From Clavelina lepadiformis (taxonomy: Eukaryota; Chordata; Ascidiacea; Aplousobranchia; Clavelinidae): a stretch of 64,000 nucleotides of DNA. The notes beneath the pieces are model-generated. The model was not told where the DNA came from and did no database searches. It saw nothing but the letters and a program-made list of their open reading frames with translations. This document shows, in pieces, positions 1 through 55,200 of this stretch (its first letter is position 1; each line of letters begins with the position of its first letter). The stretch covers positions 22,514,479 to 22,578,478 of the forward strand of contig NC_135243.1 of the NCBI RefSeq assembly GCF_947623445.1. Direction: 5' to 3'. A program made the position numbers and the translations under genes.

Positions 1-1153
1 TTTAATAGATAAAAAAAGTTCTTCTAAATTTACGGCAAACACAGAACAAATAACAAAACAAGTGGCATCAGCAGCATTTCGTTAAGGTTGGCGCCATTCA
101 ATAGGCTGACTGAGGCTGATACGCCGACTGAGGCTTTAAAGCTTGACCTTGCATGGGGCTATTTTTAACTACTTGTCTTGTATTTAACTGGATTCGTCCA
201 AACACGTTTTATTTACTGTAATTATTGCATTTCAACCGTTTAATAAAACCTTTAGCTTCTTTTTTGTGACACACAAAACAATTTTGTGTTCTATTGTCGA
301 TTTACTCAGTGACACTTTTTTTCGAAACTTTCGGTCTGAATAAATCGAACTTGATTAAGTATGCTTCGTGCTTCGACCTGAAACTCGTCTCTATGAACAT
401 TAACCGATTTCTTTACTTTCTTTGTTGAGATTATGTTTTTACTGTCATGTAAGATTTACTTTTATAGAGAAATGCAAGAAACTGTACTGAAATTAGAAGC
501 TGTAGATCAAACTGATGTCATTTTGATCTTTAGATTAGGTTTATCGAAGTAACGTTTGCGTTTGTTACATATACTATAGCGCAAAAAAAAATTTTTGCTG
601 TTTAATTACAGAAGCTGTTAATTGTGGAAAGAAATTACAGATACATACGTAACCGAAAATTCTTGCCTTCTGGTGCCAGGCTGTTTTCTCACATTCACGG
701 TGAATGGCGACATCATCAATAAAACCCAAGAAAGCAATTTATTTCATTAAACAGCCCCCACAATCAAAACCAAACCGACCTCCTTAAATCACTTAACAAC
801 GGATTTTACAGAATGCAAAAGGTGAGGTGCCAAACTATTGATAGGATAAGAGCGCACTAAACGTGAGAGCAACGATAATTAATCGCAGGTAATCAGCTAA
901 AACCAAAACACCGTGAAGTAATCATCGCACATCAAGCAGAAAATTAACGCACCATAAAAACGGTAAAATATAAGATACTATAAATAACACGTGACATATT
1001 TTCGTCACACATATACAGTAAAATTGTTTTGTGCAAGATGGAACATGATGGCAGTTATACAGTTACATCTTATCCATTTTTCGAACAAGTATTACAATCT
1101 CTATAACATGAAATTAACAACAACTGCCAACATTAAAATACAAGCATACAAAT
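1..1153. other. Left flank and 3' flank of XDH copy 1, no gene seen
   Basis: Bases 1-193 are unique to this end of the array and contain nothing I recognise. Bases 194-1153 lie downstream of the XDH stop codon on the minus strand; the only possible polyadenylation hexamer noted is at 738-743 on the minus strand, about 410 bases past the stop, and it is not strong evidence. The equivalent stretches in the other units are 18204-19164 and 36215-37175. Confidence 0.5.
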
Positions 1154-4100
1154 TTATGCTTGGATAGACCATGGGGTCAGTTTCTCTTCATTTGTTGAAT
1201 GTGACGCGTGCTGAAAGCCAAAAATATTGGTTAATCGAGAAATGTCAAGAAGGTGATATTACTATAGTTCTTACAAAATCATTAAATGTGTTCCTATGTT
1301 GAGTTATGATTAAGTTTGCTTTGAACAAACCTGTTTGGTGAAGCGGTCAGCGCAAGACATTCTAATACGTTCTGCTGACGCGGGAGAATCCAGTCGGAAC
1401 TCTCTTGGCAATCCCGAGTCTTCTCTGGCGTAACCAATCGCGTCTTTTATCGCAAAGAGAACCGATGACGCTAAAAAAAGTGGCGGTTCACCGACGGCCT
1501 AAGAATATATGGAAGTATGCAGTTTAAGGTCTTATTAAGTTAATGTACTTCAACTACATTACTGCTAACTGCAAACAGTTGTACCTTCGATGAAAATATT
1601 GCTTGCTTGTTGGATACATCTCTCAGCAAATGTACGTTGAACTCTTTAGGGCAATCCCCGAAACCGGGAATCTTGTAAGTTCCTGGTCCTCTTGTGAGCA
1701 TTTCTCCTTTTGGCGAGTAAAGCGGTTCTTCCAAAGTCATCATTCCATACCCTTGAGTAAAAGCTCCTTCGATCTAAGAACAAATAGTTCTTTTTCTTTC
1801 TAGTCGTCTGAATGTTTCACACACGATATATTTTGACTTAATTTATTGATATCAAAAACATCTTTTAGGTCAGTTATAAATGATAACCAGTACCAGTATT
1901 AAGCTATCACGACAAAATACCTCACCTGTCCAATGTCGATGCTTGGATTAAGACTTCTTCCCAAATCCATGACGATGTCAGTTCTGAGCACGATGTGATC
2001 TCCAGTCAAGCAGTCAATTTCAGCTTCAGACACCGCTGCACCGTATGTAAAGTAACTGAACCGTTTTGATTTTCCAATCTTCCCGCTTTCCCTGTCCCAA
2101 TCCCAAAAGAGATCAGGGATTCTGAAAGGAAAGTTACTAAAATTAAAGGCAGTGAAGAGATAAATAAACAAAAACACGAAAAACTATGAAGTGAAATTAA
2201 AAAGGTAGTTTGACAACCAGCTATATACATCATCCATGAAAAATAACCAGTTGGATCATTAAAATTATAAACTTCTTGATCATTAAACTAATTGTTCACA
2301 TAAGTTAGATTAAATATAGGCCTACAGTTAAGTAGCAAAAAAAATGTAAATAAACTGCAAGTCTTTGATAATTCAAAATATCTCTTTTAACCGTGCAACG
2401 TACATGTATTATATCAACGTTAAGCCTTTATACCTGTAGAATCCAGTTGCAGAAAGGCTGATTTGCTCAAAATAGGCCTTTTCGATTGTTTCATTCCAAC
2501 TTAACTCTGGGTACTTGGACTGAATAGGCTGAAGTCTTGACACGATTACTTCGCATGCATTCTGTTGGAAACAAGTTTTTGTTCTTAAAAACAACCTTGT
2601 TGTGGATTTACTTGTTTCAAAACAAATTATGGGCAGTATTAACAATAATAGATATAACAAATATTAACAATATTATATTTATTGTATGTTATTATTAATC
2701 CGTTTTTTCTTGAAAAAAATGAACTACCAGTACTCTAAATGATCAGCTTTGCACCTTTACAGCCATGCCGTTGGTATCAGAGCTTACACTGGCAGCGGTA
2801 CCAGATGCATTTGGAACGGTGCTGGTGCTTGTTTCAGAAAGATGTATCATTGCATGTGGTACGCCTAAGCAGCGGCTTGCAATCTGTAAATTTAAAGGTC
2901 GTAGTTATTTTTTCAACGCTTAACTTGTGTAGGATATTATAGTATATCAGAATACTAACTTGAATCATTTTCGTGTGTAGCCCCTGTCCCATTTCGGTTC
3001 CTCCATGAGTAACTAGAACTGATCCGTCTCTGTAAACATGCACCAGTGCCCCAGCCTGGTTGAGATAGTTTTCTTCGAAAGAGATGCCAAATTTTGTTGG
3101 AACACACGAAATGCCTCGTTTGCGCCACCTATGTTATAAAAATTGTAAACTGTCACAAACCGTGGTTAAAGAAAAAAAAACGTAACTAAAAGATGAGCAC
3201 TGCTGACATTGAGCAGCTTTGAACACTTTGTTGCAAAAATTTAACCTTCTTTGTTAACCTCATTTTCTTGTTGTAGGTTTTGATCTCTGCTTTTCGTTTG
3301 TCGAAATTTGCACGTTGCATGCATTCTTGCCAGCATCTTCTCACAAAGAAATTGTCAAGCTTTTGAGCAAAGTGAGTTAAATCCCCTTCCTCATACATAT
3401 TCATTGCTCTAATCTGGTTTAAAAACGACAAACAACATTAATGATCAGACGGTTTTGTTACTAAAAAATATCAATTTTTCTTATAACAACAGTATAAAGT
3501 TAGGTTACTGTGCAATTTATGCTATATATCAGGGGTAGCCAAACTGCGGCTCTCGAGCCGCATGCGGCTCTTTGAGCCTTTAATTGCGGCTCTTTAATGA
3601 ATTTGCATTGTTGAATTAGACATGCATTTTCCCGGTCTAGACGAGTTGTTTGATCAGATTATGAAACAATGCGTTCTATCACACGTAGTAACAATGGACT
3701 CATTGTTAGTAATAATCAAATTACACTCCAAAAAGGACATTATTGTACAGAAGTGTGCTAACTTGTACACTGTAGTTAAGTAAACTGTCAGTTTGAAGCT
3801 GTACCTCAGGGTTGACCTAGTTTTAAGTCTTGGTTACGGTTACACTAATAATTGCATAAAGAGTTGGTGAAGCCCAGGTGGAGACTCATAGTATCACCAC
3901 GCAGCACTAATGTTTATCAATAGCTACACTTCGTTGTGAGTGAATAAATTCGTATTTTTTATTGTGTTTGTGTTGCGGCTCTTTTAAAGCTCGAATTGGT
4001 AATATGCGGCTCGAGCAGGAAGCAGGTCTGGCCACCCCTGCTATATATGATGTCATTAACTATGACTGACATTCGATAAAAAAGACTAAAAATGCATAAA

Positions 4101-6611
4101 TACATTTAACATAATGACGTAAGCAAGTCGAATTTTTCACCTTTTCTGGATCCAGTTTTAATACTGCGGCCACTCTAGTGATCCATTCTTCTACAACAAG
4201 CATGCTCTGCGGTCCACCGAATCCACGAAACGCCGTGTTGGACGCAATATTGGTGCGACACATGACGCCTTTAAGGCTAACATTTGGTATTCTAAAATTA
4301 CATGTTATTTCTTTGATAAGTTAACTTAACTTCTGTGCAAGAATTTGGAATTTTGTACCTAATTTTCGCTTAAACGCAAACGCGCATTATACTTAATAAA
4401 CTTCTACATGCAGATATCTATCATAAGTTCAAAAGACCACAGAAAGAATGCCGCACTGAACCGAACAATCGACAAATATTATTAGTTTTAATTCAACCTG
4501 TAACAATTATCCGAGTGGAACAAGGCACGGTCCATCACACCGGAAGAGTTATCCAAAGTGTTTCCGCAGTTTGAGTACAAATTATTCTTTAGAGCTAAAA
4601 TTTTCCCTTCCTGATTAAAACCAACCTATTGAAAAAAGAAACATATTGTTTTTATACAGTATAGGTAAAGAAGCATCAGCAGATAGGTAAAGCATCAATG
4701 TTCAAACACAATGTCTTCAGTTTCGTTCTCTGATGTTGCTTACAGTTTTAAAACCGGAACAAACTAACTTACCTTATATTTAGAAAGGAAGGCATGGCGT
4801 TGTCCAGTTATGAGCATGTCTTCCTGTCTGGTTAGCATACATCTCACTGGCTTTCCGCACCTGCCAAGTTCAGACAAAGCGTGAATTCTTTGGCCACGTC
4901 ATACAAAACTATTATACAAACATTATGGTATTCTTTTCAAATTTTTGTAAACATTAAGAGAGCATTTAACTTGCTTGTTTGCGGCCACAACTACAGGATT
5001 TGAGAGAACGTTGTATCTTGTTTCCTTTCCTCCAAATCCTCCGCCCATCCTTTTTACTCTTACGACTATTTTATTGCATTGGACCCCTAGAGCCCGTGCA
5101 GCCTAACAACACTTATTATACAGTGACATTCCAAATAATCTAAATGAATTTGATGTTTAAGGCAAGACATGATTCAAGGACATAATGTGTATTGTCTGCT
5201 TATCTACGTTGATTTCAAGTAAATGTTAAGATATTAAGTAGAAGTTTGTAGGCAATTAACTATAAAAACTAAAAACTTACTGTATACATATATTTGCGAT
5301 ACATTCCTTGATTATGTTGAATAGTTTCGAACTTATCACTTACATTCAATTGTAGACCTGAGGGATTTTGTGAGGAAGCAAATATTTCCATTTCTCCGTC
5401 CTCTCCCTTCGGCACTGCAAGACATGCTTGCGTTTCCAGGTAGAAATGCTCTTGGCCAGCAATTCTACGAAAATATCGTGGTGAGTTAAAAAAAAATAGA
5501 CAAATTTAATTAAAAATGAGACCAAAATACTTTTCCAGTGTTAATAACGCGATTTTGTATTAATTGCCAGATTAGTTGTCTATACAAATATATGGCAAAT
5601 CAATATACACCATTACATTTTTATTTACCTGCATTTATTTTTTACAAGATTGGTGTCTACAAAAATTTAGATATGAACCAGTCAATGTATACAGTCGAAC
5701 TTCTATTAACCTGCATTCGCCACTAATAACGTGATCACAGGATTCCATCACAGTCTCAGCGTCTCCCTGAATCATTTTGCTGACTGGTTGGAAATAAGAC
5801 TCATGCTCTATTGCTTGCTGTAAAATGGAAGTTTCAGGTAAAATATTAATTAGAATATATTTTGACAATTTCGGTCTCTTGTAATTGTTTTGATCCCAAC
5901 AACCTTTACCTCAATTGTTATTATTCTTGGCGTTATGTCTTCATACTCAACGGTCACTAGTCTGGCTGCCCTTTGCGCATGCGCATTATTATCTGCAACC
6001 ACAGCACCAATGACATGACCCACATAGGTCACCTGAATCAAAGTTTTTCATCACAATTACGTTTTATGTGGCTTCTGGAACAGCTGAGTTGAAAGAAGAG
6101 CGACAGTCACTCAACATAAACACAACATTGATCATTTTACGACAGGTCAATAAAATGTCAAAAAAGCCAAAATAGTAAAATATTCACTTTTTCTTTGGCA
6201 AAAACTTGATCCTGTTTATCAATTCCAACATTATTGGAACCAGGTACGTCACGATAATCTACGTAGGTGACAAAGCCTGGTGTTCCTATTGCTTCGTCAA
6301 TATTAACACCTCGAATGTAGGCATGAGCTCTTGTACTTGTCACCAAGCACAAATACAATTCATCTATTAAAGAGCAAACTTTTGTAAAATATTACGCTGC
6401 TTGTATCCGCTTAGCTTCAAACTATGGCCTACTTTTGAACTAATTGTCGTTTCCAGCAGCCCAAGGAAAGTATTGCAATGTGCAATTTCTTCTTACCAGC
6501 ATAATGTGGAATGTCATCTAAATAAATTGCTTCTCCGGTCACTTGCTTTACAGCTGAAAGATGCTTCATTGGCCTTCCGACGGGATCATCAGCCGGTTGT
6601 TCTGCCGGCAC
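1154..6611 (-). other. XDH: XDH copy 1: molybdopterin (Moco) domains
   Basis: Exons 14-30. DPVGRP and [10 protein letters not shown] open the hammerhead domain, followed by [26 protein letters not shown] and [14 protein letters not shown] carries the catalytic-site Gln, [12 protein letters not shown] the substrate Glu, [11 protein letters not shown] the substrate Arg, [12 protein letters not shown] and SLSATGFYR further Moco-site segments, and [10 protein letters not shown] the base-catalysing Glu. The protein ends in PWSIQA, comparable with the PWSVRV end of the mammalian enzyme. Confidence 0.93.
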
Positions 6612-9600
6612 CTTTCAAGTACGCATAAATATTGAGGAAAGTTTATTGTGGAACATTCAATATCATTTGATATGATGTTTACAGAACTTTACATCTTCAT
6701 ATGTTTGTGTGTTCAAGCGTCCATAATAATCCCCACCCAGAGGAACTTGCGTAGACGTTTCTTCAACTGACAAGACAACCTGCTATTGTCACACAAAGAA
6801 ACTTAGAAAGGAAATTCATTGTAAGATTTATTCAAAACAAAGCAATAATGCCAAATTTACTTTGGATATTCCGTCCTTGATCAAACATTCCTTCACATGG
6901 ACAAAGAACTTAAAGAAAAAACTGGCTGCGAGAGCTTCTCTGTACTCCACCATTCCTCCAGGAGTACTCAGTGTAAGAGGCAAGTCCTCAGCAAGCCATC
7001 TAATTCCATCCTCCTGCAAGCTTTCATCCCATTCCCTAGAGCAAAAAATTCAACTTTTCAATATCTAAATTTAAACATTTACGTTTTTGGTTATTTGTGT
7101 CGATGGTTTTGTATATGACTCGAAATATGTCATTAAAATTTATGGGTGGAAAGATTTTTTAATTCAGCTAATACCTTTCTTTCATGTTTTCCATCATTCC
7201 AGCTGACATGAATGTTGTTGCTGCCATGCCACCAAATGCTGCAACAAACGTTTGGACTTTCCGAGTTTTAGAGTTAAACTTTACCCTCATTGCGACGTTT
7301 ACTATAGATATGTCGTCTTCTCGTCGTTTGGATTGCATGTAGAACTTTAAATATTCGTTCTAATACAAAAGTACGATGATGATATCAACTGTATATACTA
7401 AAGAAGAATGTTAGATTATGTGTGCTTTACAAAAAACGTTTCAAAATGGTTTGCAGATCTCATGAACTATGGCAATGCGAAACACACGGTGAAATACTTT
7501 TGTTGTAAAAGGAAGAGTGATGGACTTTAGAACTTCTCCAGGCATAGCTGCAGTCTTTCTATAACTCGGGAAAAAATCTTGATCCATTTTCAAAGTTCGT
7601 TCACCTCGGGAATGAAGCATGAACTTTGCCTCGCTCTCGCAAGCCATTAGAATGGGGTTAAGGTCAGATATGGGACTTGCTGTCATGACGTTTCCTCCTA
7701 ACACCTAAAAGTGCTTTTATTTACCAGGATATCTTTCTGATTTCTGTTATGCAGAGTGTGTCGAAACAATACTTGCTACATTTTAGCTTGATCCAAATAT
7801 AATGTGCAAGAAATTTCCTTTATGCAAACAGCACGTATAAGAACTCCATTTTCGACCCAGTGTGAGTTCATGTTGTTAGAAAAGTAAGACGTTTGTGCTA
7901 AGTCCTAAAAGTAAAAGTGAGATTACTTACTGCAACATTCCGTATTTGATCTCCAGCAAACCAATGAAGTGCATCAAGGACAGCTTTCATTGGCTGGGTC
8001 TGATAAGCTGGTCTTTCCGTTGTTATTTGCGTCAGTTGGTGACATATTTGCGTCAGCGTACATGAAGCACCGATGGTTACGCCTGTCGTACAAAACACAC
8101 ATTCTAAATGTCCAGTCGAATAAACGTCTATAAAAGGAACCATTTAAACAAGTGTTTACAATCGTAATGTCAACATATGTAACCTTATAAAAAGTTATGG
8201 CGAAGGCTAAAGCTGTTACGTTGTTAGGTTAATCCGTTGCTGACTCCTGACTCAGAAGGCTGCTGTTACAGTTGTAAGCTACCTTCGCTCATATATTAAA
8301 AGTTAAAACACAACCATCTTAGTTTAAGACTTTAATCGAATCATCTGTCCTGTGTGCGCAAGCAAAGCAGAAAGCGAATGGCGTGGTGAAACGAACGTGC
8401 AGTGCAGAAATCAATACATGCTGAGAACGTCCCGAGGGCGCCAACCAGCGACAAACCAAACAAACACCCAACGGTCGCTACAAAGTTAACGCTACTTTGA
8501 AGTGATAAGAATGGAATTCAAGAGGAATACCTTATTGAAAAAAACTTTGTATCAGTTGATAGAAACTTTACCTGTCGCCCTATTCTTCAAAAAATAAAAC
8601 GTACCCTAACAAAGCTATATACTTCAAGTGAGGGGCAAGTCCAAAAACAAGTTGGCCTTAAATCAAAGATTAGTTGTGACTAGTAAATATACTGGTGAAA
8701 GAATTTGTACTAATATGTAGTGGTTAAGCAGTTATTGCTATAAATAAGTGGAAAACACAACCTCATTGCTTAATTGTGACGAGGGTGGCGGTTCTTATTA
8801 CGTCACACTAGAAGAAACAATAGGGATGACTCGGTTTTTTGGATCAAGTATAAATAGAATATTTTCTGGAACAAACAAATAAAGAAGAATAGGTATAACT
8901 ACAACGTACTTATGTGTATAACAGGGACTTTTCCCTTAAATAACCCTAAACTACCTTAGCGTTCGTGTCTAGCCTATATGTACTGGTTAAAGCAAATGCT
9001 AACCGACAGTAGAGTACCGGTACAGTGTAGTCTGGGCTGCTGGCGCTAGCCTAATTCGGTACCGGTAACCGAGGTAAAAACAAGAATGTTTTGCCAGTTT
9101 ATATATGCTTATCTGTGATATTCCTATGCTGAAAATAAAAATTATCTGCTACTAATCACCTACCTATGGAGACGTATTCTATTCACAACGCGTCATCTAG
9201 CCAACTGTACCTGATATAAACCACAGACATCAGATATATTTATGGTATTATGACGTCATAATCACTGGGGTTTTCGTCATAATCAAATTTGCGATACAAT
9301 TTTGGCAATTACTGCTTAACCACTATACATATTAGTACAAATTCTTGACCAGTAGGTTACTGATTAATGTTGTTTGTTTTAAGGCCAAATTATTTTTGGA
9401 TTTTCCCCTCACTTTAACAGAAACCTGTTTCATTGATAGATATGGTCGTCAACTCGTCTACGTAAGCAGGACTAATTATGACAGGATGGTGGTGACCTTT
9501 GACCCAAGTCTCAATTCCGATCTCAGTGTTGCCGACAACGAGATGTGCTCGTGGATATTTTTCCTTCAAATCGGTTAATTGAGCTAATGTGATTGGTCTG

Positions 9601-11454
9601 TACCACGTGACGCGTTCTCCAACAAATTTTATAACCTCCGAAGATTCTTGTTGACTTGCTATCTGTAAACAAATTACCAACTTTTAGTCCTTCAAAGTAA
9701 GTTTTCTTCTCATGATCAGAGAAAATATTAACTTAACATTTTCGGCATCGTTTAGTTTGCTTGAAAATTTTCTTTCAAAAATGTTTTTCATTACTTCAGT
9801 GTTTCAATTATACCTTGTTTAATACAAAATTAATTAATGGGTGCTAATGTAGTGGATAAAATCCAGATCATCATTGAATTAGCTTAAAGTCAGCTAAAAA
9901 ATGCTAAAAGTTCATCCAGCGTTGCCCTCCGAAAAAGAATTATAATCTTAAAAATTTTGATTAATAGTTTTCAATTTTATTCTAAAATTTATAAGGTCCA
10001 ATTAAACAGGTACTGCAGGAAAAATTGTTTACCAATAATTCTGGAGGAAATATTGGTTCCTGGGTTGAGTCATGAGGAGCATATTGACACGGGTTCTTTA
10101 CGTCACTATCTTCAACTTTGACGTCTCCATTTACAACTAGATCTACAAGATATTCATTTATGATGCAACTGATCAAAAGCCATGTTAACTAAGTCAATAT
10201 GAATTGTCATATACTCAACTGTCGCAACCATTTTGCTTGTTTTGGCAACAATTTGCGCCCAAAGGGCAACCCGAAGCGCCTGGTGGTAACGGCTTGGCAA
10301 ATGTGTTAAATGCTAGACAAAACAGAGCCAAGTTTAGACTTCCATAGCATTATATATAGGCCTAATGTAAGTATTTAAAATACTGCAGTAGAAGTCGGTT
10401 AAGTTGGTTATTATTTGGCAAAAAGTGCTGCATCACGTCAGCAAGCTTACCACTCAATATTGGTCGATAACCTGTACATCGACACAGATTTCCTTGAAGT
10501 GACATTTCGATGTCACGTGACGTTGGACCTTCTTTGTTACGTAACAATGTGTACATAGACATAACAATGCCAGGAGTACAAAAACCACATTGCGATCCAT
10601 GAAAATCAGCCAGACGTTCCTGTTTTAGATAGCATAAAATTTTGTTGATTTGAAGTTGATTTATAATTTGCATTTGTACTTTTAGTAAACCACTGAATTT
10701 AACAAAAATTAAATTGTAGGTTAATTGAAGACATACAAGTCATGAATGCATTGCACTTATAACATGACCTGAACTGGGTGAAGCTTTGTTTTTGTGCTTC
10801 CAATCCCTTCTATCGTTGTAACCGCACATTCATGCATTGATACAACAGGTGCTAGGCAGGCATTAACGGAAATGTGACTATAAAATGAAAATAACGCATT
10901 TGCTTTTGTTTAGCGCAAAACAAGACTCATAGACAGTACCATGACAGTTTAGTAGAACGTTTTACATGTATCCAAAAAATTAAACCCTCGCAAACGACAT
11001 ATTGATCGTAACCTACGTAGAAATTAATATAAAACAAGTGTTGCTTCTTACATCGCTTTAGATTATGGTCGAAGACATATCAGTGTAAAAACTTTCAGAA
11101 CTTCCTATCTGTATACTCACATTATTCTTCCTTCATAGCGGCTCCATCTGGACACCATGACAGTGCAAGCTCCACAGCCTCCTTCCCCGCATCCTAGCTT
11201 GGTACCGGTCAATCTAACTAAAATACAACAACAAGAATAAACATTGTAATGTTTTGTCAAAATAAAACCGTATTTTACTTTAAACGTAAACAATTTGGCT
11301 GAAAAAGCTATTGATTCGTACATCCTTTTATGCTTTGTTTTCAAATTTTCATAGTTTAAGTGAGAATTTTTCACTGCAAATTGCGCGATCACTTACGCTT
11401 TGTTCTCAAATAAGTTAAAAGAGAAATTTCAGGATCTGCGCTTTCATCTGTAAC
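1154..11454 (-). CDS. XDH: Xanthine dehydrogenase/oxidase, copy 1 (exon 1 not found)
   Basis: Molybdenum-iron-sulphur flavoenzyme that oxidises hypoxanthine to xanthine and urate in purine breakdown. Exons read 5' to 3' (numbered from 2): 11397-11454, 11121-11217, 10769-10877, 10451-10619, 10229-10312, 10033-10142, 9425-9662, 7931-8082, 7498-7704, 7175-7359, 6861-7035, 6693-6779, 6497-6611, 6188-6363, 5910-6032, 5711-5817, 5344-5464, 4975-5102, 4773-4860, 4498-4625, 4141-4291, 3259-3413, 2960-3128, 2755-2883, 2434-2561, 1926-2121, 1585-1773, 1331-1498, 1154-1210 (stop TAA at 1154-1156). They sum to 3,999 bases in continuous phase, about 1,332 residues, the usual family length. All introns are GT-AG except one GC-AG. 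GGKETR and FRGFGGPQ point to XDH rather than aldehyde oxidase, and VGEPPLF carries the catalytic Glu. The short first exon, expected to end in a VNG(R/K)K-like motif, was not identified. I saw no frameshift or stop in the placed exons. Confidence 0.95.
3530..4040. mobile_element. Non-autonomous hAT element in XDH intron, unit 1
   Basis: A 511-bp element with imperfect terminal inverted repeats (CAGGGGTAGCCAAACTGCGG at the left, GGCCACCCCTG at the right) flanked by an exact 8-bp target duplication CTATATAT (3522-3529 and 4041-4048). The CAGGGGTGG-like ends and 8-bp duplication are typical of hAT. No transposase coding is visible. It lies in the intron between XDH exons 22 and 23 and is present in all three units, so it predates the duplications. 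Confidence 0.92.
8231..8482. mobile_element. Truncated foldback MITE remnant in XDH intron 8, unit 1
   Basis: The stretch matches the centre and right arm of the intact 403-bp element at 50809-51211: shared pieces include CTCAGAAGG, CTTCGCTCATATATTAAAA, GAGGGCGCCAACCAGCGAC and the end CGCTACA. The left inverted-repeat arm is missing. It is an older, decayed member of the same family. Copies lie at about 26243-26494 and 44254-44505. Confidence 0.75.
8626..9414. mobile_element. Long inverted-repeat MITE in XDH intron 8, unit 1
   Basis: About 790 bp bounded by inverted arms of roughly 120 bp: the left arm begins AAGTGAGGGGCAAGTCC and contains TTGGCCTTAAA, TTTGTACTAATATGTA and TGGTTAAGCAGT; the right arm reads the reverse complement of the same series with some mismatches and ends CCCCTCACTT. 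The right end lies only 10 bases from XDH exon 8 (9425). Flanks are TTCA and TTAA, so a decayed TTAA duplication is possible but not convincing. No coding capacity seen. Confidence 0.8.
10451..11454 (-). other. XDH: XDH copy 1: two [2Fe-2S] domains
   Basis: Exons 2-5. The plant-ferredoxin-type cluster shows CGEGGCGAC in exon 3 and the following cysteine in NACLAP (exon 4). The second, helical cluster shows CGFCTPG and [10 protein letters not shown] in exon 5. Together these are the eight cluster cysteines expected in the family. In unit 3 this region is on the diverged side and carries at least four replacements relative to units 1 and 2: Asp to Glu in exon 2, Tyr to Asp in exon 3, Glu to Gly in exon 4, Arg to Ser in exon 5. 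None touches a cluster cysteine. Confidence 0.93.
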
Positions 11455-11741
11455 CTGCAAAAGGGATTTTTAAAGATTTGCTTACACTCTATTTTCCATT
11501 TACGAATTTTAACCTAACACGAGCACATAACAATCTTCAATGTTAGCTGTTAAATTATATTCATTTATAATTAATAGGTTTATCAAAGTATTAGTATTAG
11601 CAAATGACTTGAATAACAATGTATCCATGGGAAAGTGCATTAGCCATTTCGTGTCAATAACGCAGTTTATGATTTTAGGGACAATGTAGCTATGGTTGCC
11701 AAATAATTTGATAAAGTACCCACACAAAGCATATACTAAGT

Positions 11742-12085
11742 CAGGGCTTCTGAAACATTTTTGTTGTGTGACCCCATTTTAGAAAAGAAATTTCTGTGCG
11801 ACCTCTTGATGGGTGGCCTACATGTTAATGATATTAAAACAATAAACGTCCCATCACAAATATCAAGTGCTATTTTTGTCTATGGCGACATCATGCAAAC
11901 GCAAACAATTTATGAAATTAGCTGTTCAGTAAATCATTAACAAATGAACTGCGTAATGGAAAAGGAAAAGCAAAAAAAATACCAAAAAACAATTCAACTT
12001 ATGAAAGTTGAATTTGTTTCAGGATCCAAAAAATACATTTTGCGACCTCAAATTTTAGACACGACCCATAGTTTGAGAAGCCTTG
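11742..12085. mobile_element. Short hAT-type MITE upstream of XDH, unit 1
   Basis: 344 bp with inverted ends CAGGGCTTCTGAAAC and GTTTGAGAAGCCTTG, flanked by an imperfect 8-bp duplication TACTAAGT (11734-11741) and TGCTAAGT (12086-12093). The GTGTGACCCC subterminal sequence recurs near the other end as GCGACCTCAAA-like sequence. No coding capacity seen. The plus-strand open frame 11944-12240 runs across its right end and is not taken as a gene. Confidence 0.82.
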
Positions 12086-18051: not shown

Positions 18052-18190
18052 CTGCAAAAATAATTTACATTTTATCAATTTCGGTAACATTGTTAGAGCA
18101 AAATACGTAAAAGAAAGTGTTTGCATATTACGTATACAAATTAGCTAGCAAGAAATTACAAGCGCAAGCTGAAAGCTTGTAATGTGACAC

Positions 18191-43100: not shown

Positions 43101-46100
43101 TTACGTTTTTGGTTATTTGTGTCGATGGTTTTGTATATGACTCGAAATATGTCATTAAAATTTATGGGTGGAAAGATTTTTTAATTCAGCTAATACCTTT
43201 CTTTCATGTTTTCCATCATTCCAGCTGACATGAATGTTGTTGCTGCCATGCCACCAAATGCTGCAACAAACGTTTGGACTTTCCGAGTTTTAGAGTTAAA
43301 CTTTACCCTCATTGCGACGTTTACTATAGATATGTCGTCTTCTCGTCGTTTGGATTGCATGTAGAACTTTAAATATTCGTATACAATACAAAAGTACGAT
43401 GATGATATCAACTGTATATACTAAAGAAGAATGTTAGATTATGTGTGCTTTACAAAAAACGTTTCAAAATGGTTTGCAGATCTCATGAACTATGGCAATG
43501 CGAAACACACGGTGAAATACTTTTGTTGTAAAAGGAAGAGTGATGGACTTTAGAACTTCTCCAGGCATAGCTGCAGTCTTTCTATAACTCGGGAAAAAAT
43601 CTTGATCCATTTTCAAAGTTCGTTCACCTCGGGAATGAAGCATGAACTTTGCCTCGCTCTCGCAAGCCATTAGAATGGGGTTAAGGTCAGATATGGGACT
43701 TGCTGTCATGACGTTTCCTCCTAACACCTAAAAGTGCTTTTATTTACCAGGATATCTTTCTGATTTCTGTTATGCAGAGTGTGTCGAAACAATACTTGCT
43801 ACATTTTAGCTTGATCCAAATATAATGTGCAAGAAATTTCCTTTATGCAAACAGCACGTATAAGAACTCCATTTTCGACCCAGTGTGAGTTCATGTTGTT
43901 AGAAAAGTAAGACGTTTGTGCTAAGTCCTAAAAGTAAAAGTGAGATTACTTACTGCAACATTCCGTATTTGATCTCCAGCAAACCAATGAAGTGCATCAA
44001 GGACAGCTTTCATTGGCTGGGTCTGATAAGCTGGTCTTTCCGTTGTTATTTGCGTCAGTTGGTGACATATTTGCGTCAGCGTACATGAAGCACCGATGGT
44101 TACGCCTGTCGTACAAAACACACATTCTAAATGTCCAGTCGAATAAACGTCTATAAAAGGAACCATTTAAACAAGTGTTTACAATCGTAATGTCAACATA
44201 TGTAACCTTATAAAAAGTTATGGCGAAGGCTAAAGCTGTTACGTTGTTAGGTTAATCCGTTGCTGACTCCTGACTCAGAAGGCTGCTGTTACAGTTGTAA
44301 GCTACCTTCGCTCATATATTAAAAGTTAAAACACAACCATCTTAGTTTAAGACTTTAATCGAATCATCTGTCCTGTGTGCGCAAGCAAAGCAGAAAGCGA
44401 ATGGCGTGGTGAAACGAACGTGCAGTGCAGAAATCAATACATGCTGAGAACGTCCCGAGGGCGCCAACCAGCGACAAACCAAACAAACACCCAACGGTCG
44501 CTACAAAGTTAACGCTACTTTGAAGTGATAAGAATGGAATTCAAGAGGAATACCTTATTGAAAAAAACTTTGTATCAGTTGATAGAAACTTTACCTGTCG
44601 CCCTATTCTTCAAAAAATAAAACGTACCCTAACAAAGCTATATACTTCAAGTGAGGGGCAAGTCCAAAAACAAGTTGGCCTTAAATCAAAGATTAGTTGT
44701 GACTAGTAAATATACTGGTGAAAGAATTTGTACTAATATGTAGTGGTTAAGCAGTTATTGCTATAAATAAGTGGAAAACACAACCTCATTGCTTAATTGT
44801 GACGAGGGTGGCGGTTCTTATTACGTCACACTAGAAGAAACAATAGGGATGACTCGGTTTTTTGGATCAAGTATAAATAGAATATTTTCTGGAACAAACA
44901 AATAAAGAAGAATAGGTATAACTACAACGTACTTATGTGTATAACAGGGACTTTTCCCTTAAATAACCCTAAACTACCTTAGCGTTCGTGTCTAGCCTAT
45001 ATGTACTGGTTAAAGCAAATGCTAACCGACAGTAGAGTACCGGTACAGTGTAGTCTGGGCTGCTGGCGCTAGCCTAATTCGGTACCGGTAACCGAGGTAA
45101 AAACAAGAATGTTTTGCCAGTTTATATATGCTTATCTGTGATATTCCTATGCTGAAAATAAAAATTATCTGCTACTAATCACCTACCTATGGAGACGTAT
45201 TCTATTCACAACGCGTCATCTAGCCAACTGTACCTGATATAAACCACAGACATCAGATATATTTATGGTATTATGACGTCATAATCACTGGGGTTTTCGT
45301 CATAATCAAATTTGCGATACAATTTTGGCAATTACTGCTTAACCACTATACATATTAGTACAAATTCTTGACCAGTAGGTTACTGATTAATGTTGTTTGT
45401 TTTAAGGCCAAATTATTTTTGGATTTTCCCCTCACTTTAACAGAAACCTGTTTCATTGATAGATATGGTCGTCAACTCGTCTACGTAAGCAGGACTAATT
45501 ATGACAGGATGGTGGTGACCTTTGACCCAAGTCTCAATTCCGATCTCAGTGTTGCCGACAACGAGATGTGCTCGTGGATATTTTTCCTTCAAATCGGTTA
45601 ATTGAGCTAATGTGATTGGTCTGTACCACGTGACGCGTTCTCCAACAAATTTTATAACCTCCGAAGATTCTTGTTGACTTGCTATCTGTAAACAAATTAC
45701 CAACTTTTAGTCCTTCAAAGTAAGTTTTCTTCTCATGATTAGAGAAAATATTAACTTAACATTTTCGGCATCGTTTAGTTTGCTTGAAAATTTTCTTTCA
45801 AAAATGTTTTTCAATACTTCAGTGTTTCAATTATACCTTGTTTAATACAAAATTAATTAATGGGTGCTAATATAGTGGATAAAATCCAGATCATCATTGA
45901 ATTAGCTTAAAGTCAGCTAAAAAAAGCTAAAAGTTCATCCAGCGTTGCCCTCCGAAAAAGAATTATAATCTTAAAAATTTTGATTAATAGTTTTCAATTT
46001 TATTCTAAAGTTTATAAGGTCCAATTAAACAAGTACTGCAGGAAAAATTGTTTACCAATAATTCTGGAGGAAATATTGGTTCCTGGGTTGAGTCATGAGG

Positions 46101-47471
46101 AGCATATTGACACGGGTTCTTTACGTCACTATCTTCAACTTTGACGTCTCCATTTACAACTAGATCTACAAGATATTCATTTATGATGCAACTGATCAAA
46201 ATCCATGTTAACTAAGTCAATATGAATTGTCATATACTCAACTGTCGCAACCATTTTGCTTGTTTTGACAACAATTTGCGCCCAAAGGGCAACCCGAAGC
46301 GCCTGGTGGTAACGGCTTGGCAAATGTGTTAAATGCTAGACAAAACAGAGCTAAGTTTAGACTTCCATAGCATTATATATAGGCCTAATGTAGCCTACGT
46401 ATTTAAAATACTGCAGTAGAAGTCGGTTAAGTTGGTTATTATTTGGCAAAAAGTGCTGCATCACGTCAGCAAGCTTACCACTCAATATTGGTCGATAACC
46501 TGTACATCGACACAGATTTCCTTGAAGTGACATTTCGATGTCACTGGACGTTGGACCTTCTTTGTTACGCAACAATGTGTACATAGACATAACAATGCCA
46601 GGAGTACAAAAACCACATTGTGATCCATGAAAATCAGCCAGACGTTCCTGTTTTAGAAAGCATAAAATTTTGTTGATTTGAAGTTGATTTATAATTTGCA
46701 TTTGTACTTTTAGTAAACCACTGAATTTAACAAAAGGTAAATTGTAGGTTAATTGAAGACATACAAGTCATGAATGCATTGCACTTATGACATGACCTGA
46801 ACAGGGTGAAGCTTTGTTTTTGTGCTTCCAATTCCTTCTATCGTTGTAACAGCACATCCATGCATTGATACAACAGGTGCTAGGCAGGCATTAACTGAAA
46901 TGTGACTATAAAACGAAAATAACACATTTGCTTTTGTTTAGCGCAAAAGACAATACCATGACAGTTTAGTAGAACTTTTTACATGTATCCAAAAAATTAA
47001 ATCCTCGCAAACGACATATTGATCGTAACCTACGTAGAAATTAATATAAAACAAGTGTTGCTTCTTACATCGCTTTAGATTATGGTCGAAGACATATCAG
47101 TGTAAAAACTTTCAGAACTTCCTATCTGTATACTCACATTATTCTTCCTTCATCACGGCTCCATCTGGACACCATGACAGTGCAAGCTCCACAACCTCCT
47201 TCCCCGCATCCTAGCTTGGTACCGGTTAATCTGACTAAAATACAACACCAAGAATAAACATTGTAATATTTTGTCAAAATAAAACCGTATTTTACTTTAA
47301 ACGTAAACAATTTGGCTAAAAAAGCTATTAATTCGTACATCCTTTTATGCTTTGTTTTCAAATTTTCATAGTTTAAGTGAGAATTTTTCACTGCAAATTA
47401 CGCGAGCACTTACGCTTTGTTCTCAAATAAGTTAAAAGAGAAATTTCAGGATCTGCGCTTTCCTCTGTAAC
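37176..47471 (-). CDS. XDH: Xanthine dehydrogenase/oxidase, copy 3 (mosaic)
   Basis: Third tandem copy. Exons 8-30 equal copy 2 shifted by 18011 (exon 8 is 45448-45685, stop at 37176-37178). Exons 7 to 2 lie beyond the 45740 boundary on diverged sequence: 46056-46165, 46252-46335, 46479-46647, 46797-46905, 47138-47234, 47414-47471. All keep their phases and splice dinucleotides. Exon 11 has the same acceptor loss as copy 2, with the alternative in-frame exon at 43197-43411. The iron-sulphur part carries several replacements relative to copies 1 and 2, all outside the cluster cysteines. Being joined to intact gene A on its right, this copy sits at the ancestral right end of the locus. Confidence 0.92.
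39552..40062. mobile_element. Non-autonomous hAT element in XDH intron, unit 3
   Basis: Third copy of the 511-bp element, with identical ends and 8-bp flanking duplication. Confidence 0.92.
44254..44505. mobile_element. Truncated foldback MITE remnant, unit 3
   Basis: Unit 3 copy of the remnant at 8231-8482, in the same XDH intron. Confidence 0.75.
44649..45437. mobile_element. Long inverted-repeat MITE in XDH intron 8, unit 3
   Basis: Unit 3 copy of the element at 8626-9414. It lies just inside the part of unit 3 that is identical to unit 2; the identity boundary is about 300 bp further on. Confidence 0.8.
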
Positions 47472-47758
47472 CTGCAAAAGGGATTTTTAAAGATTTGCTT
47501 ACACTCTATTTTCCATTTACGAATTTTAACCTAACACGAGAACATAACAATCTTCAATGTTAGCTGTTAAATTATATTCATTTAAAATTAATAGGTTTAT
47601 CAAAGTATTAGTATTAGCAAATGACTTGAATAACAATGTATCCATGGGAAAGTGCATTAGCCATTTCGTGTCAATAACGCAGTTTATGATTTTAGGGACA
47701 ATGTAGCTATGGTTGCCAAATAATTTGATAAAGTACCCACACAAGGCATATACTAAGT

Positions 47759-48102
47759 CAGGAGTTCTCAAACATTTTTGTTGTGTGACCCCATTTTAGA
47801 AAAGAAATTTATGTGCCACCTCTTGGTGGGTGGCCTACATGTTAATGATATTAAACCAATAAACGTCCCATCACAAATATCAAGTGCTATTTTTGTCTAT
47901 GGCGAAATCATGCAAGTGCAAACAATTCATGAAATTAGCTGTTCAGTAAATCAGTAACAAATGAACCGCGTAATGGAAAAGGAAAAGCAAAAAAAATACC
48001 AAAAAACAATTCAACTTATGAAAGTTGAATTTGTTTCAGGATCCAAAAAATACATTTTGCGACCCCAAATTGTAGACACGACCCATAGTTTGAGAAGCCT
48101 TG
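47759..48102. mobile_element. Short hAT-type MITE upstream of XDH, unit 3
   Basis: Unit 3 copy on the diverged side. Its left end reads CAGGAGTTCTCAAAC, a better match to its right end (GTTTGAGAAGCCTTG) than the ends in units 1 and 2, so it preserves the older state. Confidence 0.82.
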
Positions 48103-49810
48103 TGCTAAGTGACAATAGGAAGAGTAGAAAACTTAAAGTATTCCTTGACCAAACACCTTATATCGACAAACTAAGTCACCTTTCGCCCATTGACATAAAA
48201 CACCAAAGCAGTTTTGGCTTTGTTCCAAATATGCTCCGCTTGCATTTTGCCCAATAAGGAGAGCAATACGTTTATTTCGTAAGAAAACTGAACTTAAAAC
48301 CACAACATATCATCACATTTGAAATATAAAATGTTACTAAAAGTTTAAGCAGCAGCTTTCTAGCAGTTTTCTTTCGTCATCCAACAGTTTAAATAGCACT
48401 AGCACCCTCAGAGACTTTAGTAAACGTTTTTCATTTTATTACCATAACAACACGACTATGTAGGCTCGATTGATTTTGAACAGAGTTAGATAAATCGCTT
48501 AAAAACTGAAACTTAATTGTTTGCTCAATCTTTTTGATACACTTCTTAATATATCTCAGTCCGTTTCTGACAAACTACGGTTGCAAGGTTGTTTCCTTTA
48601 TTCAATGCAGCAGTGTAACTACATTTACGCATTAAAGCAATTGCGGACTTCCTGTGTTCAGGGAAGTGTGATGTCCAAGTAACCTTAGTTATAGCCTGCA
48701 GTCAGCAGATTTTATTGAGCTGCTTACTACAAATGAACTCTCTCTTCCTGCCAGGCTACTCTGTCACCAAACAAAAGTCGCCACCTCGAAAGCTTTTAAT
48801 TGTTTAACTAACTTAAACCTTTTAGATTCCTAGACTATACGGCTGCGTTTGCTTGACTGAAATATCTGTAAACTTCTGATAACATAAAATATTTTAGATG
48901 ACAGGAAAAACCTCCATTGGATTTACTTTAAATAACAGCTTTGCACTGTCGTTCCGCAAACACATGTAAGCTATTCAAGCGTAATGGTTACTCTCAATGT
49001 TTGTTGAAAGACAAGTTTTGGCGACAACATTGACACATCAACTTTATCGTGCTGTTCGTTGCTGCCATCGAGTTTGCGGCGTTACGCAAACAAAGAAGTT
49101 ATAGGTCCTCTTGCTTAGGTTTACGAATGTTTAACGAGTAATTGTAAATTGTGTTCAAAGAGTCATAATCACCTACATACTAATACTCAAAAAAGTATCT
49201 AGTACTCGTTCAGACAAGGCGAATTTCAAACAGTTAAACTAACTTAAAAAAAATACACAAATTGACCTTTTATTTCGCTAGTTTGGCTTATTTACGTTTG
49301 CACTTGCGATGGCCGAATGACGAACCCATTAGTGAGTGTCCTATGGGCGTACAACCAGTTTTTGACTAAGATAGTATACTATATAGTATGTAGGATATGT
49401 AAATATGTAGATAGTATACCAATACTGTATACCTCAATATAAATTTAATTTTTGAAACGAACTTTTACATGAGGTTTTTCTTGATAATTAAAGACCGATG
49501 TTTGGTAAAGTCGGTGAGATGTGAAACGTTTTGATAATCCGTGATTTGATTTTTGATTCTAAAAAATCTAGGTTGCTAGTTGTGTTATATTTTTGAGCAT
49601 AATGGCAAATACATGAGACTGAACTTTATCCAAGGCTCAAGAAGGCTGTGAAAAGTCCCAACTCAAACTGTAGATTCCAGCGTTAACCTGCTCTGTCGTC
49701 TTCAGTATTGCGAAGAAGAGCTAAGAAACCGACCAAAAACTGACCTGTGGTCGCATTTAGTTGAGTTGCATTCTTGACTTGCGTATTTTGCACATGGAAT
49801 TACTTACACT

Positions 49811-50170
49811 TTGGTTGCTATGCAGACAACCGAGCATGCAAACCGTAGACCGATGATAACCACCAGAAACAAACTGTATTGCTTAAAAAAGTTTGGCAGG
49901 AAAAAGAGTAATCTTACAGTAGGCTATATAAAAAGGTTGTCTAATGGACTAAACACACAAGATTTACTGAAAGGTCGAGGTAGCTCGTTAGCGACAACTA
50001 ACGTTGAAAAGAAACGCCTTAATGGTCGACATAAAAAGCAATTAACAGAAAGAAAAAACGGAGTCTATCGGAACGCATTTTTGAAATACGAAATAAAACA
50101 CTTATACCTCACCGCCCCTTTGTTTCATATTTCCAATAATACTTCTGGCTTCCATTGCACAAAACTATAA
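49811..50170 (+). other. Longer version of the basic open reading frame, unit 3
   Basis: 119 codons from ATG at 49811. It contains the whole basic stretch seen at 13905-14114, with 5' and 3' extensions that are closed in units 1 and 2 by a one-base indel in an A-run (near 49889) and by a stop. No known domain. Possibly non-coding; reported because it is the longest otherwise unexplained open frame in the array. Confidence 0.2.
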
Positions 50171-50808
50171 AAAGCACAAAAGAGCCGAATGCGATCGGTT
50201 GAGTGGAAATCGATCTGCAAAATTTCAGTGACATGAAACTGAACGATTTGAGTTATATCACGATGTAACTACCCACACCAAATTTTGAAAACAAAGGAAT
50301 GTTAATGGCGAGACAACGGTATACTGGACATTAAACAAAAAGGAATTTGAGATACTGCATACTTTTACTAACTACTAACATACTAACTTTTTAATTTAGA
50401 TTCCCTTTACTTTGCACGACTTAAACTGAGCGACGACATATCATTGCTTGATTCCTGGCTTTGAAAAACACTTAGTTGATATATTTACTGTTTTAATTAC
50501 TTGGATCTAGCTCGAACTGGAAACTGTCTACAAAGTCCACAAACTCATCGTTAACGGCTTGCCCGAAATATTGCAAACAACACCGCTGCTGAGCATAAGT
50601 TGTCGAACATTTATGCTGGAAAAATTATTACTGCGAGGCAAAACTTTTGAGGGCTTTTGTTTCTCTAAAATCCCCGTCATTACCATAATCATGAACACTG
50701 TGGCGAATAACCCATATTTTAAGTGTAATTATGGTTTGGTATTTTATTTGATAATAAACATTGCAAAATACGTTTGTGCATATTAAAGTGTCAGAGTTGT
50801 AGTAGGTG

Positions 50809-51211
50809 TGTAGCGGCCATGGGGTGTTTGTTTGTTTTGTCGCTGGTTGGCGCCCTCGGAATGTTACCGCACGTGTCGATTTCAGCACTGCGCGTTCGTT
50901 TTACCACCATTCCGTTTTGCACCGCTTGTGCACAGGACGCATGAGTTTGAGTAAAGGCTAAACCGACGGTTGTTGACTCCTTGTCTCAGAAGGTTGCTAT
51001 TTCTGTTCTCTGTCTCCTTCGCTCATATATTAAAATAAATGAACACGAGGTTCTGAGTTTAGCCTTTACTCAAACTCATGCGTCCTGTGCACAAGCGGTG
51101 CAAAACGGAATGGTGGTAAAACGAACGCGCAGTGCTGAAATCGACACGTGCGGTAACATTCCGAGGGCGCCAACCAGCGACGAAACAAACAAACACCCCA
51201 TGGCCGCTACA
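50809..51211. mobile_element. Intact foldback MITE, private to unit 3
   Basis: 403 bp with terminal inverted repeats of about 155 bp that are almost perfect, beginning TGTAGCGGCCATGGGGTG and ending CATGGCCGCTACA. It is flanked by GGTG on both sides (50805-50808 and 51212-51215). Units 1 and 2 have the empty site AGTAGGTGTAATAG near 14773-14785 and 32784-32797, which proves insertion with a 4-bp target duplication. No transposase; superfamily not assigned. The older relative is at 8231-8482. Confidence 0.93.
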
Positions 51212-52249
51212 GGTGTAATAAATTCGCAATCGTGTCTATCTGTTAAATCTATTAAGCCTGTTTTCCATATTGAGCGAATTTAGACCGCGGCAGGGGTATT
51301 AAAATTTGTTTATGCATGTCACATTGTTTTCAACTAAAGTCTGTCATAAATCTATATTTGCTGCAACTAGAAGCGCTATTTTTGTTTGCCAAAGAGAGAC
51401 AGTTTTTTTATGTTTATTTATCGCTTGTCGATTCAAAGCAAACTACAAAATCAGCAAATTACTTTTAGCATAAAAGCATATGATATGTGTGATACGTTAT
51501 GATGTTCATGATAAAATGAAATATAATTCATGAGATAAAAACACTTTACATCCAAATATTGATCACGTAAAATTGCAAAATATCATGAAATGAGATATTT
51601 ACAAATTTTACTATATACATTGTCTATATTTTTACTTCACAAAATGTATTAAATGTTTAAAACTCTACTAACAGACGAAGAGCATAAAACTAGTACAAGG
51701 TAAAGTTGAAAAATGTACAGAATCAATTTATACAAAAAAAAATTTATTTAGCATACATATAAGCTTTTAATTTTCATAACAGCGGTTTTCAATTTGTTTT
51801 GTATACTTTTGCCTTAAAAATGTTTTTGCTCTTCCTCTGTCAACAATAACGTTTTCTAATAATAGCAGCACAAATACTGGCGCAAATCTCAGAAGCAGAT
51901 TTCGAAAAAAGCAAAAAAACTCGGTATCATAAAGCACAATAATCAATTTTTGCAATTTGCATAAAAACTTTTAACTGAGCTTTTAAAGCAAAATCACTAA
52001 TATTTTTGCACAATATTTTGTGTAACTCTGTGAACGCTTTTGCACTTCATTTGAGTGCTAGCACTGCTACTTTGGAATTATAAAACCATGTTTAAAAAAA
52101 TTAAACAATAATATAAGTTTTTAAAGTGTATAACGCGTCATTCAGATTATGCCGTTTTTTGTGCTACTTTCCTATCGATTTTCATTGTTTCATGTGACAA
52201 TGACTCCGAGTTCTGCTGATATATGATTATTGTAATGAGTTGACGTTGT

Positions 52250-55200
52250 TTATTTTCTTAGTTTAAACAATTTTGATAAAGATTTTCCTGCTGGGGAAAA
52301 TAGGAATTTATGAGTCTCATCCGCCATGAGTCTGAGGTCCCTTAAAAAACAAAAACAAAATTATTTAAAGCTACTTGCTATGTAAGTAATTTTGTGGTGA
52401 GGCAATGATTATTTTTCAAATATTAATGTTTTTGTCAATATTATCAGCATATCAAATATTTATCTATTTATAATATATTTATTTTTATTTTATTTATTTT
52501 ATATTTATTATTATTTTATATTTATATTTTATTTTTATTTTATATATCTATTTATATTTAAATATTTATTTATATTATTATAAATTTATCAAATATTATC
52601 AAATTTCAAAAATCAATATCAGTTCCATGTTGAATTTTAGAAAACTTTAGAAGATCGTGCCATTATGCTTCGTATATTTTTAAAGCACATTGGCTGTTGC
52701 AGTATTGTATATTTAAGATAATGTTTTATTATTTTACTGGTTTGGGTCGTTTATTCGCATATTTGTCAGTAGATCAGACAGGTCTAATTGCTTCTGTAAT
52801 TTCTCTTTGTTTTTCTTCAACTGGCAAATGTTACAGATTAGTTGCAAAGAAGCTTTTCTGTTTGACTCTTCACCTATTTGCGTATGATAAAGATATGGTT
52901 AATTACTGAATAGCTTTAAAAATGCTTTATAAAATAAAAAAAAAATAAAATAGAAAAAATTTACAAATATCAATTAATATTTTCAACAAAATTTGAATAA
53001 TATTATGGATAATGGCTTTTTGTAACAAATATAACATGTTTATTATTCAAATAAATCATTTTTACCTGATTTTAAAAAGTTCGTTATGTAATCAACGGAT
53101 CCAGGACATTTTAGAATTGCTGCTGCATTTTCGTCATTGCGAGCAAGCTGAGCCAATCCATCAAACATTTCGGACAGCGAATAACTTCCTCTTTTGAGCT
53201 TAATGTCTTTATTGATTGCAACAGCTTTGTTGATATTCTTTGATTTGGTTTCCCAAATAGAAGAAATGAGATTAAAAGTAATAAAATCTTGTAGATTTTT
53301 ATCGTAGTAGCTTGAAGTTATCACATCAGTCTCCAACAGCTTTTGAAATACTAACCTCCACAATGTAGTTAAGTAAAGACTGATGGACTTTCAAGGAACC
53401 CAGCTGGTCTTCCTCTGCCATGTAAGTCACAGAAAAAGCAATGAAGGTTAAAAACTCCATTCTTTCTAATCCCTGTGTCAATGAAATGAAAACAGAAAAT
53501 AATGTAGTGTGATTGATGTCAGAACTGATATTGTTCCTAAGTTATCGAAATACTGATACTAGTTATGGAGCGCAAATATTCAGCTGTGTTCAAATGATTT
53601 TTTGTTACATACGTTTTTTGAATTGTTGATACTTTTTGCGTAAATTTTACTTTTCAATGCGTTCTGATTATATTCAGTTTAAGTAAAGCTACAATAAAGC
53701 TAACTTACCACTTCTTTGACCATTTCGTGTCTAAATTCTGACATTATTTCAAAGGTGTTTTGTACTTTTGCATAAATCAAAGGCTCTGGTCTTTTTGCAC
53801 AGTTGTACAAAATACCTACAGCTTTTTGTTCTGCGTAACCTTTCACCTAAAAAAAAATAATATCTAAGTTGAAATACTAAAAACAAAGAAAGTCAATGTA
53901 GCCAAACTCAAAAGGTTTTTCAGATTAATGAGTATCTTAAAATGTAATGGTAGTTGATTATGCGTAAGGGTAATCATTAGTACCTCCAATGGAAGCCAAA
54001 ATAAGCCTTGTAAACATTGCAAATGTACAGCCATCAACGTAATCAAACCTTGCTTGCAACATTCAAAGCAAAATTCTGAGCTAGTTTCAGTCATGTTAAA
54101 CACCAATCCTTTAAGTACTTCCAAGAATCCATATCTCACGCTAAATAAAACAACAAAACAATTTAGTATGAGAAATTAAAATGAAAATAGCCCGTTAATT
54201 AGTCATGATTAAGAGATGCATCAAGCATATATGCAAGTATAATCACCGCGATTAATGAAAAATGACCAAGTATAAAAAGTTTCTTTCGCCTTGCATGAAC
54301 CAATATAAAGGTTTGGGGCGCGGGTGTTGAAGGTATGTTTGGCAAATGCAAAAATTTCAACCACGACCTATGCAAAGCAACCTGGTATTTCAAGTGAAAT
54401 CATGTATGACCGAAAAAAATTCGAGTGAAAAGCACTTTCGAATCGATATAGCCTTTCAAAATTAATAAATAAATCTATTATAAGAAAGCAAAGAAGATTT
54501 TATTACTTGCCACCATATTTGCATTGATTTAGACTAGTAACAATACAGAGGTAAATGCAAATACTTTACTACCTCAAATGTCATTTTTTGGCTCAAATAA
54601 AACACGTATAAAAATAGATGAAATCATTTTTAATTTTAGCATTAACTTAAGTAAAACCAAAAAATAAACAAACAACTTGCTGGCAATGCCAGCCTACCTG
54701 TCAATTGGATATTCATTTCCATCATCAATTAAAATCTTGAAATATTGAAGAAACAGTGGAATAACATCATGACTTATCATCTCATCCACAAAATCGTTTT
54801 GAAAGCTCTGCAAAAATAATTTACATTTTATCAATTTCCGTAACGTTGTTAGAGCAAAATACGTAAAAGAAAGTATTTGCATATTACGTATACAAATTAG
54901 CTAACAAGAAATTACAAGTGCAAGCTAAAAGCTTCTAATGTGACACTCTCACAGTAGCCGAATGTAAAAAAGTAAGTGGCATAATGTAAATATTAAACCA
55001 GCTTTCAATCATAACGTATTTTGGGAGTGTGGTTTTGGCTGATTTTACAAAATGTAACAAACAGCGTTTTTCTTCTAAAACTAAAGATTGCTTTTTTTTT
55101 AAATTACGTTCACAAATAATCTGTTTGGCTCAAATTTAGCTACTCTGCATGCGGTTTTGTAAACTACGCCACAATGGAAGAACCAATTTGCATAAAAGAC

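What the first reader, a model, noticed from the sequence alone, without database searches (positions are those of the whole stretch)
194..54950. Three tandem XDH genes in an 18.01 kb array
Each unit carries an XDH gene with all 29 recognisable exons. XDH is usually single copy in animals, so a triplicated, near-identical set would be a marked dosage change in purine catabolism, or else an assembly artefact. Both shared junctions are identical, so one breakage event followed by amplification is the simplest history.
Basis: partly seen in the sequence, partly recalled or inferred. Interest (0 to 1): 0.85.

Follow-up and report, generated by a model that had tools for sequence, protein, structure and literature searches.

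The report
Recent tandem XDH array in sea squirt
A sea squirt chromosome carries three head-to-tail copies of the gene for xanthine dehydrogenase, part of a larger group of such genes; the middle copy looks like the product of a very recent unequal exchange, and two of the three copies have lost a normal splice site.

Summary
The array is real in the assembly. [quoted passage not shown] Units are 18,010, 18,011 and 18,737 bp; each holds a 30-coding-exon XDH gene (minus strand) and the 3' part of a neighbouring gene. It is not a simple near-identical triplicate: units 1 and 2 differ by 8 substitutions; unit 3 equals unit 2 for its first 9.5 kb and then diverges by 4.3%. Unit 2 is a mosaic, as unequal crossing-over in a two-copy array would leave. 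Both joints share a 13-bp filler, pointing to one founding join. Five more full XDH genes and a fragment lie about 150-270 kb away; all eight form one Clavelina clade. A derived change shared by units 2 and 3 removes the exon-11 splice acceptor, so only unit 1 (identical to the deposited protein) has canonical splicing; the others must use another site (a strong upstream one gives +13 residues, a weak downstream one -5) or make less enzyme. Uricase gave no hit in this genome, so XDH may be the last purine step. Verdict: ordinary birth-and-death of a tandem family, unusually legible, with a splice lesion that undercuts a plain threefold dosage. Copy number needs reads.

The parts
194..18203 (.). 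Unit 1 (L1+R1)
   Evidence: self-BLAST and alignment
18204..36214 (.). Unit 2, mosaic (L2+R1)
36215..54951 (.). Unit 3 (L2+R2), the end copy joined to the single-copy right flank
1157..12228 (-). XDH gene of unit 1 (coding span without stop codon), 30 coding exons, 1357 aa, identical to deposited protein P0001; intron 19 is GC-AG
19168..30240 (-). XDH gene of unit 2, 30 coding exons, exon-11 acceptor lost
37179..48245 (-). XDH gene of unit 3, 30 coding exons, exon-11 acceptor lost; 5 residues differ from unit 2, all in the first 145
7360..7361 (-). Intact exon-11 acceptor AG of unit 1
25370..25373 (-). Lesion that removes the exon-11 acceptor in unit 2 (net +1 bp)
43381..43384 (-). Same lesion in unit 3
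25374..27728 (.). Interval of unit 2 in which the switch from L2 to R1 must lie (the three units are identical here)
18191..18203 (.). 13-bp filler at joint 1/2; 7 of its bases repeat a stretch 22 bp upstream
36202..36214 (.). Same filler at joint 2/3
52737..55447 (-). Neighbouring gene, recognised exons b7 to b1; b1 lies outside the unit
15999..18045 (-). Copy of that gene without b1, unit 1
34010..36056 (-). Copy of that gene without b1, unit 2
58168..63945 (-). Second, diverged member of the neighbouring gene family

Best explanation
A genuine, young tandem array within a lineage-specific XDH family. Shown: both internal joints are the same and carry the same filler; the right end of the unit lies between the first two recognised exons of the neighbouring gene and the left end about 1 kb beyond the 3' end of XDH; unit 2 has the left half of unit 3 and the right half of unit 1. 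Inferred: one end-joining event made a two-copy array; an unequal crossover between copy 2 of one chromatid and copy 1 of another, within a 2.4-kb identical tract, then made the mosaic middle unit. Inferred: the genes encode XDH-type enzymes that make urate, with unit 1 the only canonically spliced copy of the three and units 2 and 3 spliced at a substitute acceptor or partly non-productive. The family as a whole evolves by birth and death.
For: Mosaic: u2 and u3 do not differ in the first 9,525 aligned columns, where u1 and u2 differ at 7 of 9,523; in the remainder u1/u2 differ at 1 of 8,486 and u2/u3 at 364 of 8,383. Identical joints with filler. First recognised exon of the neighbour gene once only. 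In the MoCoBD_1 search 46 of 46 candidates matched, on C4 and C3 and on no other contig (the tool calls its counts lower bounds). In a 22-row tree the eight Clavelina genes form one clade, support 100/100, split into a window clade and an array-A clade, each 100/100. Purifying selection between unit 1 and the five array-A genes: dN 0.104-0.107, dS 0.55-0.58. Assembly: HiFi 117x, QV 67.4, 0.6% duplicated BUSCO (PMC10884593, part 1 of 3 of the text).
Against: No reads, depth, alternate haplotype or RNA were available. The left halves of units 2 and 3 have no marker over 9.5 kb, so extra identical L2-R1 units could be collapsed and the count could be wrong either way. The near-identity of L1 and L2 (7 of 9,523) against 4.3% in R needs an earlier conversion of the left half, or a founding exchange between two haplotypes; the data do not separate these. 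Two sites of the right half, 11216/29228 and the one-base gap at 15402/33413, have u2=u3 and not u1, against the plain mosaic; they must be changes in unit 1 or a small conversion.
Confidence: 0.8

Rival explanations
1. Assembly artefact: haplotypes of a one- or two-copy locus laid end to end, or a misjoin.
For: Unit 1/2 divergence is very low (8 substitutions in 18 kb); units 2 and 3 share 9.5 kb without a marker; nine haplotypic duplications had to be removed in curation, and Hi-C came from another individual.
Against: The units share a joint that needs a real end-to-end connection; unit 2 combines L2 with R1, an adjacency that some molecule must have had unless it is a misjoin; differences between units 1 and 2 lie at most about 4.2 kb apart, within HiFi read length (recalled); no N in the window.
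Confidence: 0.12
2. The founding duplication joined two different haplotypes (inter-homologue exchange), so the 4.3% in the right half is allelic divergence, not age.
For: Right halves 4.3% apart while left halves are 0.07% apart, as patchy allelic divergence would give in one step.
Against: Heterozygosity of this species was not measured here; gene conversion of the left half explains the same pattern.
Confidence: 0.35
3. Units 2 and 3 are dead or dying copies: the acceptor loss gives unproductive mRNA.
For: The residues next to the lost site are kept in 120 of 120 aligned homologues, the best 120 listed of 7,985 matches, two of them Clavelina's own; the downstream AG is weak, 3rd percentile of 97 distinct acceptors of these genes.
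Against: No stop and no other broken splice site in the models; a stronger upstream acceptor (79th percentile) is in frame in units 2 and 3 because of the net +1 bp.
Confidence: 0.4

Closest known systems
Xanthine dehydrogenase/oxidase (animal XDH)
   Same: Seven XDH/AOX Pfam domains above cut-off in P0001 and P0002; best solved relatives are mammalian XDH, 1398 bits against 1099 for the best aldehyde oxidase (query put together from exon pieces of unit 3); GGKET, RALFH and GEPP motifs in 8 of 8 copies.
   Different: Eight full copies in one genome; two with a lost exon-11 acceptor.
Silkworm XDH1/XDH2 (recalled as a duplicated pair; here only a listing with title and abstract start was seen, PMC3722175)
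   Same: More than one XDH gene in an animal.
   Different: Independent origin: the Clavelina genes form their own clade against the 14 other rows of the tree, which hold no silkworm.
Array A, C4:22247662-22361917, same genome
   Same: Five full XDH genes and one fragment, four of the genes spaced about 17.8 kb.
   Different: Older copies (dS 0.033-0.090 among the five), all five keep the exon-11 acceptor; DNA matches of 400 bp or more to the window units lie in the XDH genes.

Membership tests
XDH | Two [2Fe-2S], FAD and molybdopterin domains in order | tested here: met
   P0001 (= unit 1) and P0002 (= array A copy 1); units 2 and 3 not scanned themselves
XDH | XDH-type residues Glu802, Arg880, Glu1261 (bovine numbers recalled) | tested here: met
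   GGKET, RALFH, GEPP in 8 of 8 copies; positions counted by hand on the alignment
XDH | Closer to XDH than to AOX | tested here: met
XDH | Intact exon-11 region before the FAD-domain loop | tested here: inconclusive
   met in unit 1 and array A; acceptor lost in units 2 and 3, product unknown
XDH | Oxidises hypoxanthine and xanthine to urate | not testable with these tools
   needs enzyme assay
Tandem array made by unequal crossing-over | Identical internal joints | tested here: met
Tandem array made by unequal crossing-over | Mosaic internal unit matching each neighbour on one side | tested here: met
   two sites of the right half depart from it
Tandem array made by unequal crossing-over | Copy number confirmed by read depth | not testable with these tools
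   no reads held

The most novel reading that the evidence does not exclude
Units 2 and 3 make a new kind of XDH: the lesion removed the old acceptor and at once put a stronger upstream one in frame, so that 39 more nucleotides become coding and insert 13 net residues just before the FAD-domain loop that (recalled from bovine XDH) governs the dehydrogenase/oxidase switch. The array would then hold one normal and two altered enzymes in a chordate in which no uricase was found.
Probability: 0.12. Interest if true: 0.65.

Novelty: new member of a known kind. Interest (0 to 1): 0.4.

Why it matters
It catches a gene family in the act of expanding: the joint, the mosaic unit and a shared splice lesion are all still legible. 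In an animal where uricase was not found, extra XDH could set how much urate is stored, so copy number and splicing here can be tested against urate levels. A link to the white pigment lines of the species is speculation; no call bears on it.

Tried and rejected
Rejected: 'three copies in the genome'. Rejected: 29 exons (30). The dN/dS runs on units 2 and 3 failed because of wrong exon ends in my script and were redone; one of the four listed u1/u2 codon differences (codon 433) is an alignment effect at the lesion, so three silent coding differences remain. The neighbouring gene: no Pfam match up to E = 1, and none of 1,399 candidates reached E 0.001; both queries were exon pieces strung together, so this does not show that it has no relatives. 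It is left unnamed; its helical-repeat look is by eye only. Literature: eight searches; no title or abstract start listed there reports this XDH array. Seen of papers: PMC10884593, part 1 of 3; PMC12373286 (not used) and PMC6320678, passages; the rest listings only. No tRNA found in the window by ARAGORN. A eukaryotic positive control for the uricase search (PF00962) did not complete; allantoicase is uninformative because no control genome rang. The whole-protein search with P0002 scored only 34 of 194 candidates and showed C4 matches only, so it says nothing on C3.

Full report
What and where. The homologue search returned two deposited proteins of Clavelina lepadiformis on a contig of 25,070,715 bases, the length of C4 here and the scaffold N50 of assembly kaClaLepa1.1 (PMC10884593, part 1 of 3 read). 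The window is C4:22514479-22578478.

The array. Self-comparison gives three head-to-tail units, 194-18203, 18204-36214 and 36215-54951. Units 1 and 2 differ by 8 substitutions and 3 gap columns over 18 kb. Unit 3 does not differ from unit 2 in the first 9,525 aligned columns (the split is set at the first difference), then differs at 364 of 8,383 aligned columns and by many gaps. In the same left part units 1 and 2 differ at 7 of 9,523 columns, in the right part at 1 of 8,486. So unit 2 has unit 3's left half and unit 1's right half; the switch lies between window 25374 and 27728. That is the expected product of unequal crossing-over in a two-copy array. Two sites of the right part, a substitution (11216/29228) and a one-base gap (15402/33413), have unit 2 like unit 3 and not like unit 1; they are most simply changes in unit 1.

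Breakpoints. Both internal joints carry the same 13-bp filler, of which 7 bases repeat sequence 22 bp upstream. The right end of the unit lies between the first and second recognised exons (b1, b2) of a neighbouring minus-strand gene: b1 (55304-55447) occurs once, b2-b7 occur in all three units. Units 1 and 2 therefore carry a copy without b1, and unit 3 is the end copy that keeps the right flank. The 10 kb left of the window match neither these exons nor the window DNA.

The XDH genes. Spliced alignment gives 30 coding exons in each of the three genes and in the five full genes of array A, without internal stops and with TAA directly after (corrected models). Unit 1 gives exactly P0001, array A copy 1 exactly P0002. 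P0001 stands for a cluster of six sequences; the other five were not seen, so what is deposited for units 2 and 3 is unknown. Unit 3 differs from unit 2 by five residues, all among the first 145. Pfam domains, solved relatives and active-site motifs say XDH, not AOX.

The splice lesion. Unit 1 reads ..TATTAG|AACGAATATTTAAAG before exon 11; units 2 and 3 read ..TATTGTATACGAATATTTAAAG. The five array-A genes read ..TAG|GATGAG, so the loss is derived. The residues at this point are present in 120 of 120 aligned homologues (the best 120 listed of 7,985; two are Clavelina's own, and P0015 carries a long insert there). In units 2 and 3 an AG 54 nt upstream of the conserved core (79th percentile of 97 distinct acceptors from unit 1 and array A) is in frame because of the net +1 bp and would give 1370 residues; an AG 45 nt upstream (4th percentile) is in frame too; the AG at the core (3rd percentile) would give 1352 residues. 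In unit 1 the upstream AG leads to a stop. The unit-1 acceptor itself scores low (6th percentile), which speaks against leaning on these scores. Which site is used is not known.

The family. The MoCoBD_1 search matched 46 of 46 candidates, on C4 and C3 only; the tool calls its counts lower bounds. C4 holds five more full genes and a fragment in 22247662-22361917, minus strand, four of the genes about 17.8 kb apart, that is about 150 to 270 kb left of the window's genes. The fragment shows only e22-e28 of my 28 query pieces, the last one broken between frames. In a tree of 22 rows the eight full genes form one clade (100/100), split into window and array-A clades. dS is 0.55-0.58 between unit 1 and the array-A copies and 0.033-0.090 within array A, with dN/dS 0.15-0.24 there. 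The C3 domain hits fall in three places; the one read (L029) looks AOX-like, the Glu of GGKET being Ala. Ciona savignyi and Styela clava also show more than one XDH protein, so several XDH genes are not unusual in tunicates.

Context. Uricase (PF01014) and OHCU decarboxylase (PF09349) gave no match in this genome, while controls rang in 2 and 4 of 14 genomes; my eukaryotic positive control did not complete, so sensitivity for intron-rich genes rests on the XDH domains alone. [quoted passage not shown] If so XDH is the last step and its product, urate, accumulates.

Verdict. A real (in the assembly), young, mosaic tandem array in an expanded XDH family: an ordinary kind of event, unusually legible, with a splice lesion that undercuts a simple threefold-dosage reading. 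Copy number and splicing remain to be shown from reads.

Noticed in passing
C4:22247662-22361917 (L009-L021): Second, older XDH array: five full genes and a 3' fragment with a frame break.
   Followed up: yes
L012-L013, C4:22273248-22285359: Inverted repeat of about 4.6 kb, arms 99.8% identical, between the XDH fragment and four of the array-A genes.
   Followed up: no
window 52737-63945 and C4:22288667-22290017: Related small-exon genes of unknown type beside both XDH arrays; no Pfam or protein match with strung-together exon pieces.
   Followed up: partly
C3:19176818-19219295: Three places with hits of the molybdopterin domain; the one read looks AOX-like, so the sister family may be multi-copy too.
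   Followed up: partly
window 4973-4974 and the same place in units 2 and 3: Intron 19 of the window genes is GC-AG; array A has GT there.
   Followed up: yes
window 44367-44540 and 51079-51279: Similar translated stretches recur within unit 3 (seen by eye), as a dispersed repeat would.
   Followed up: no
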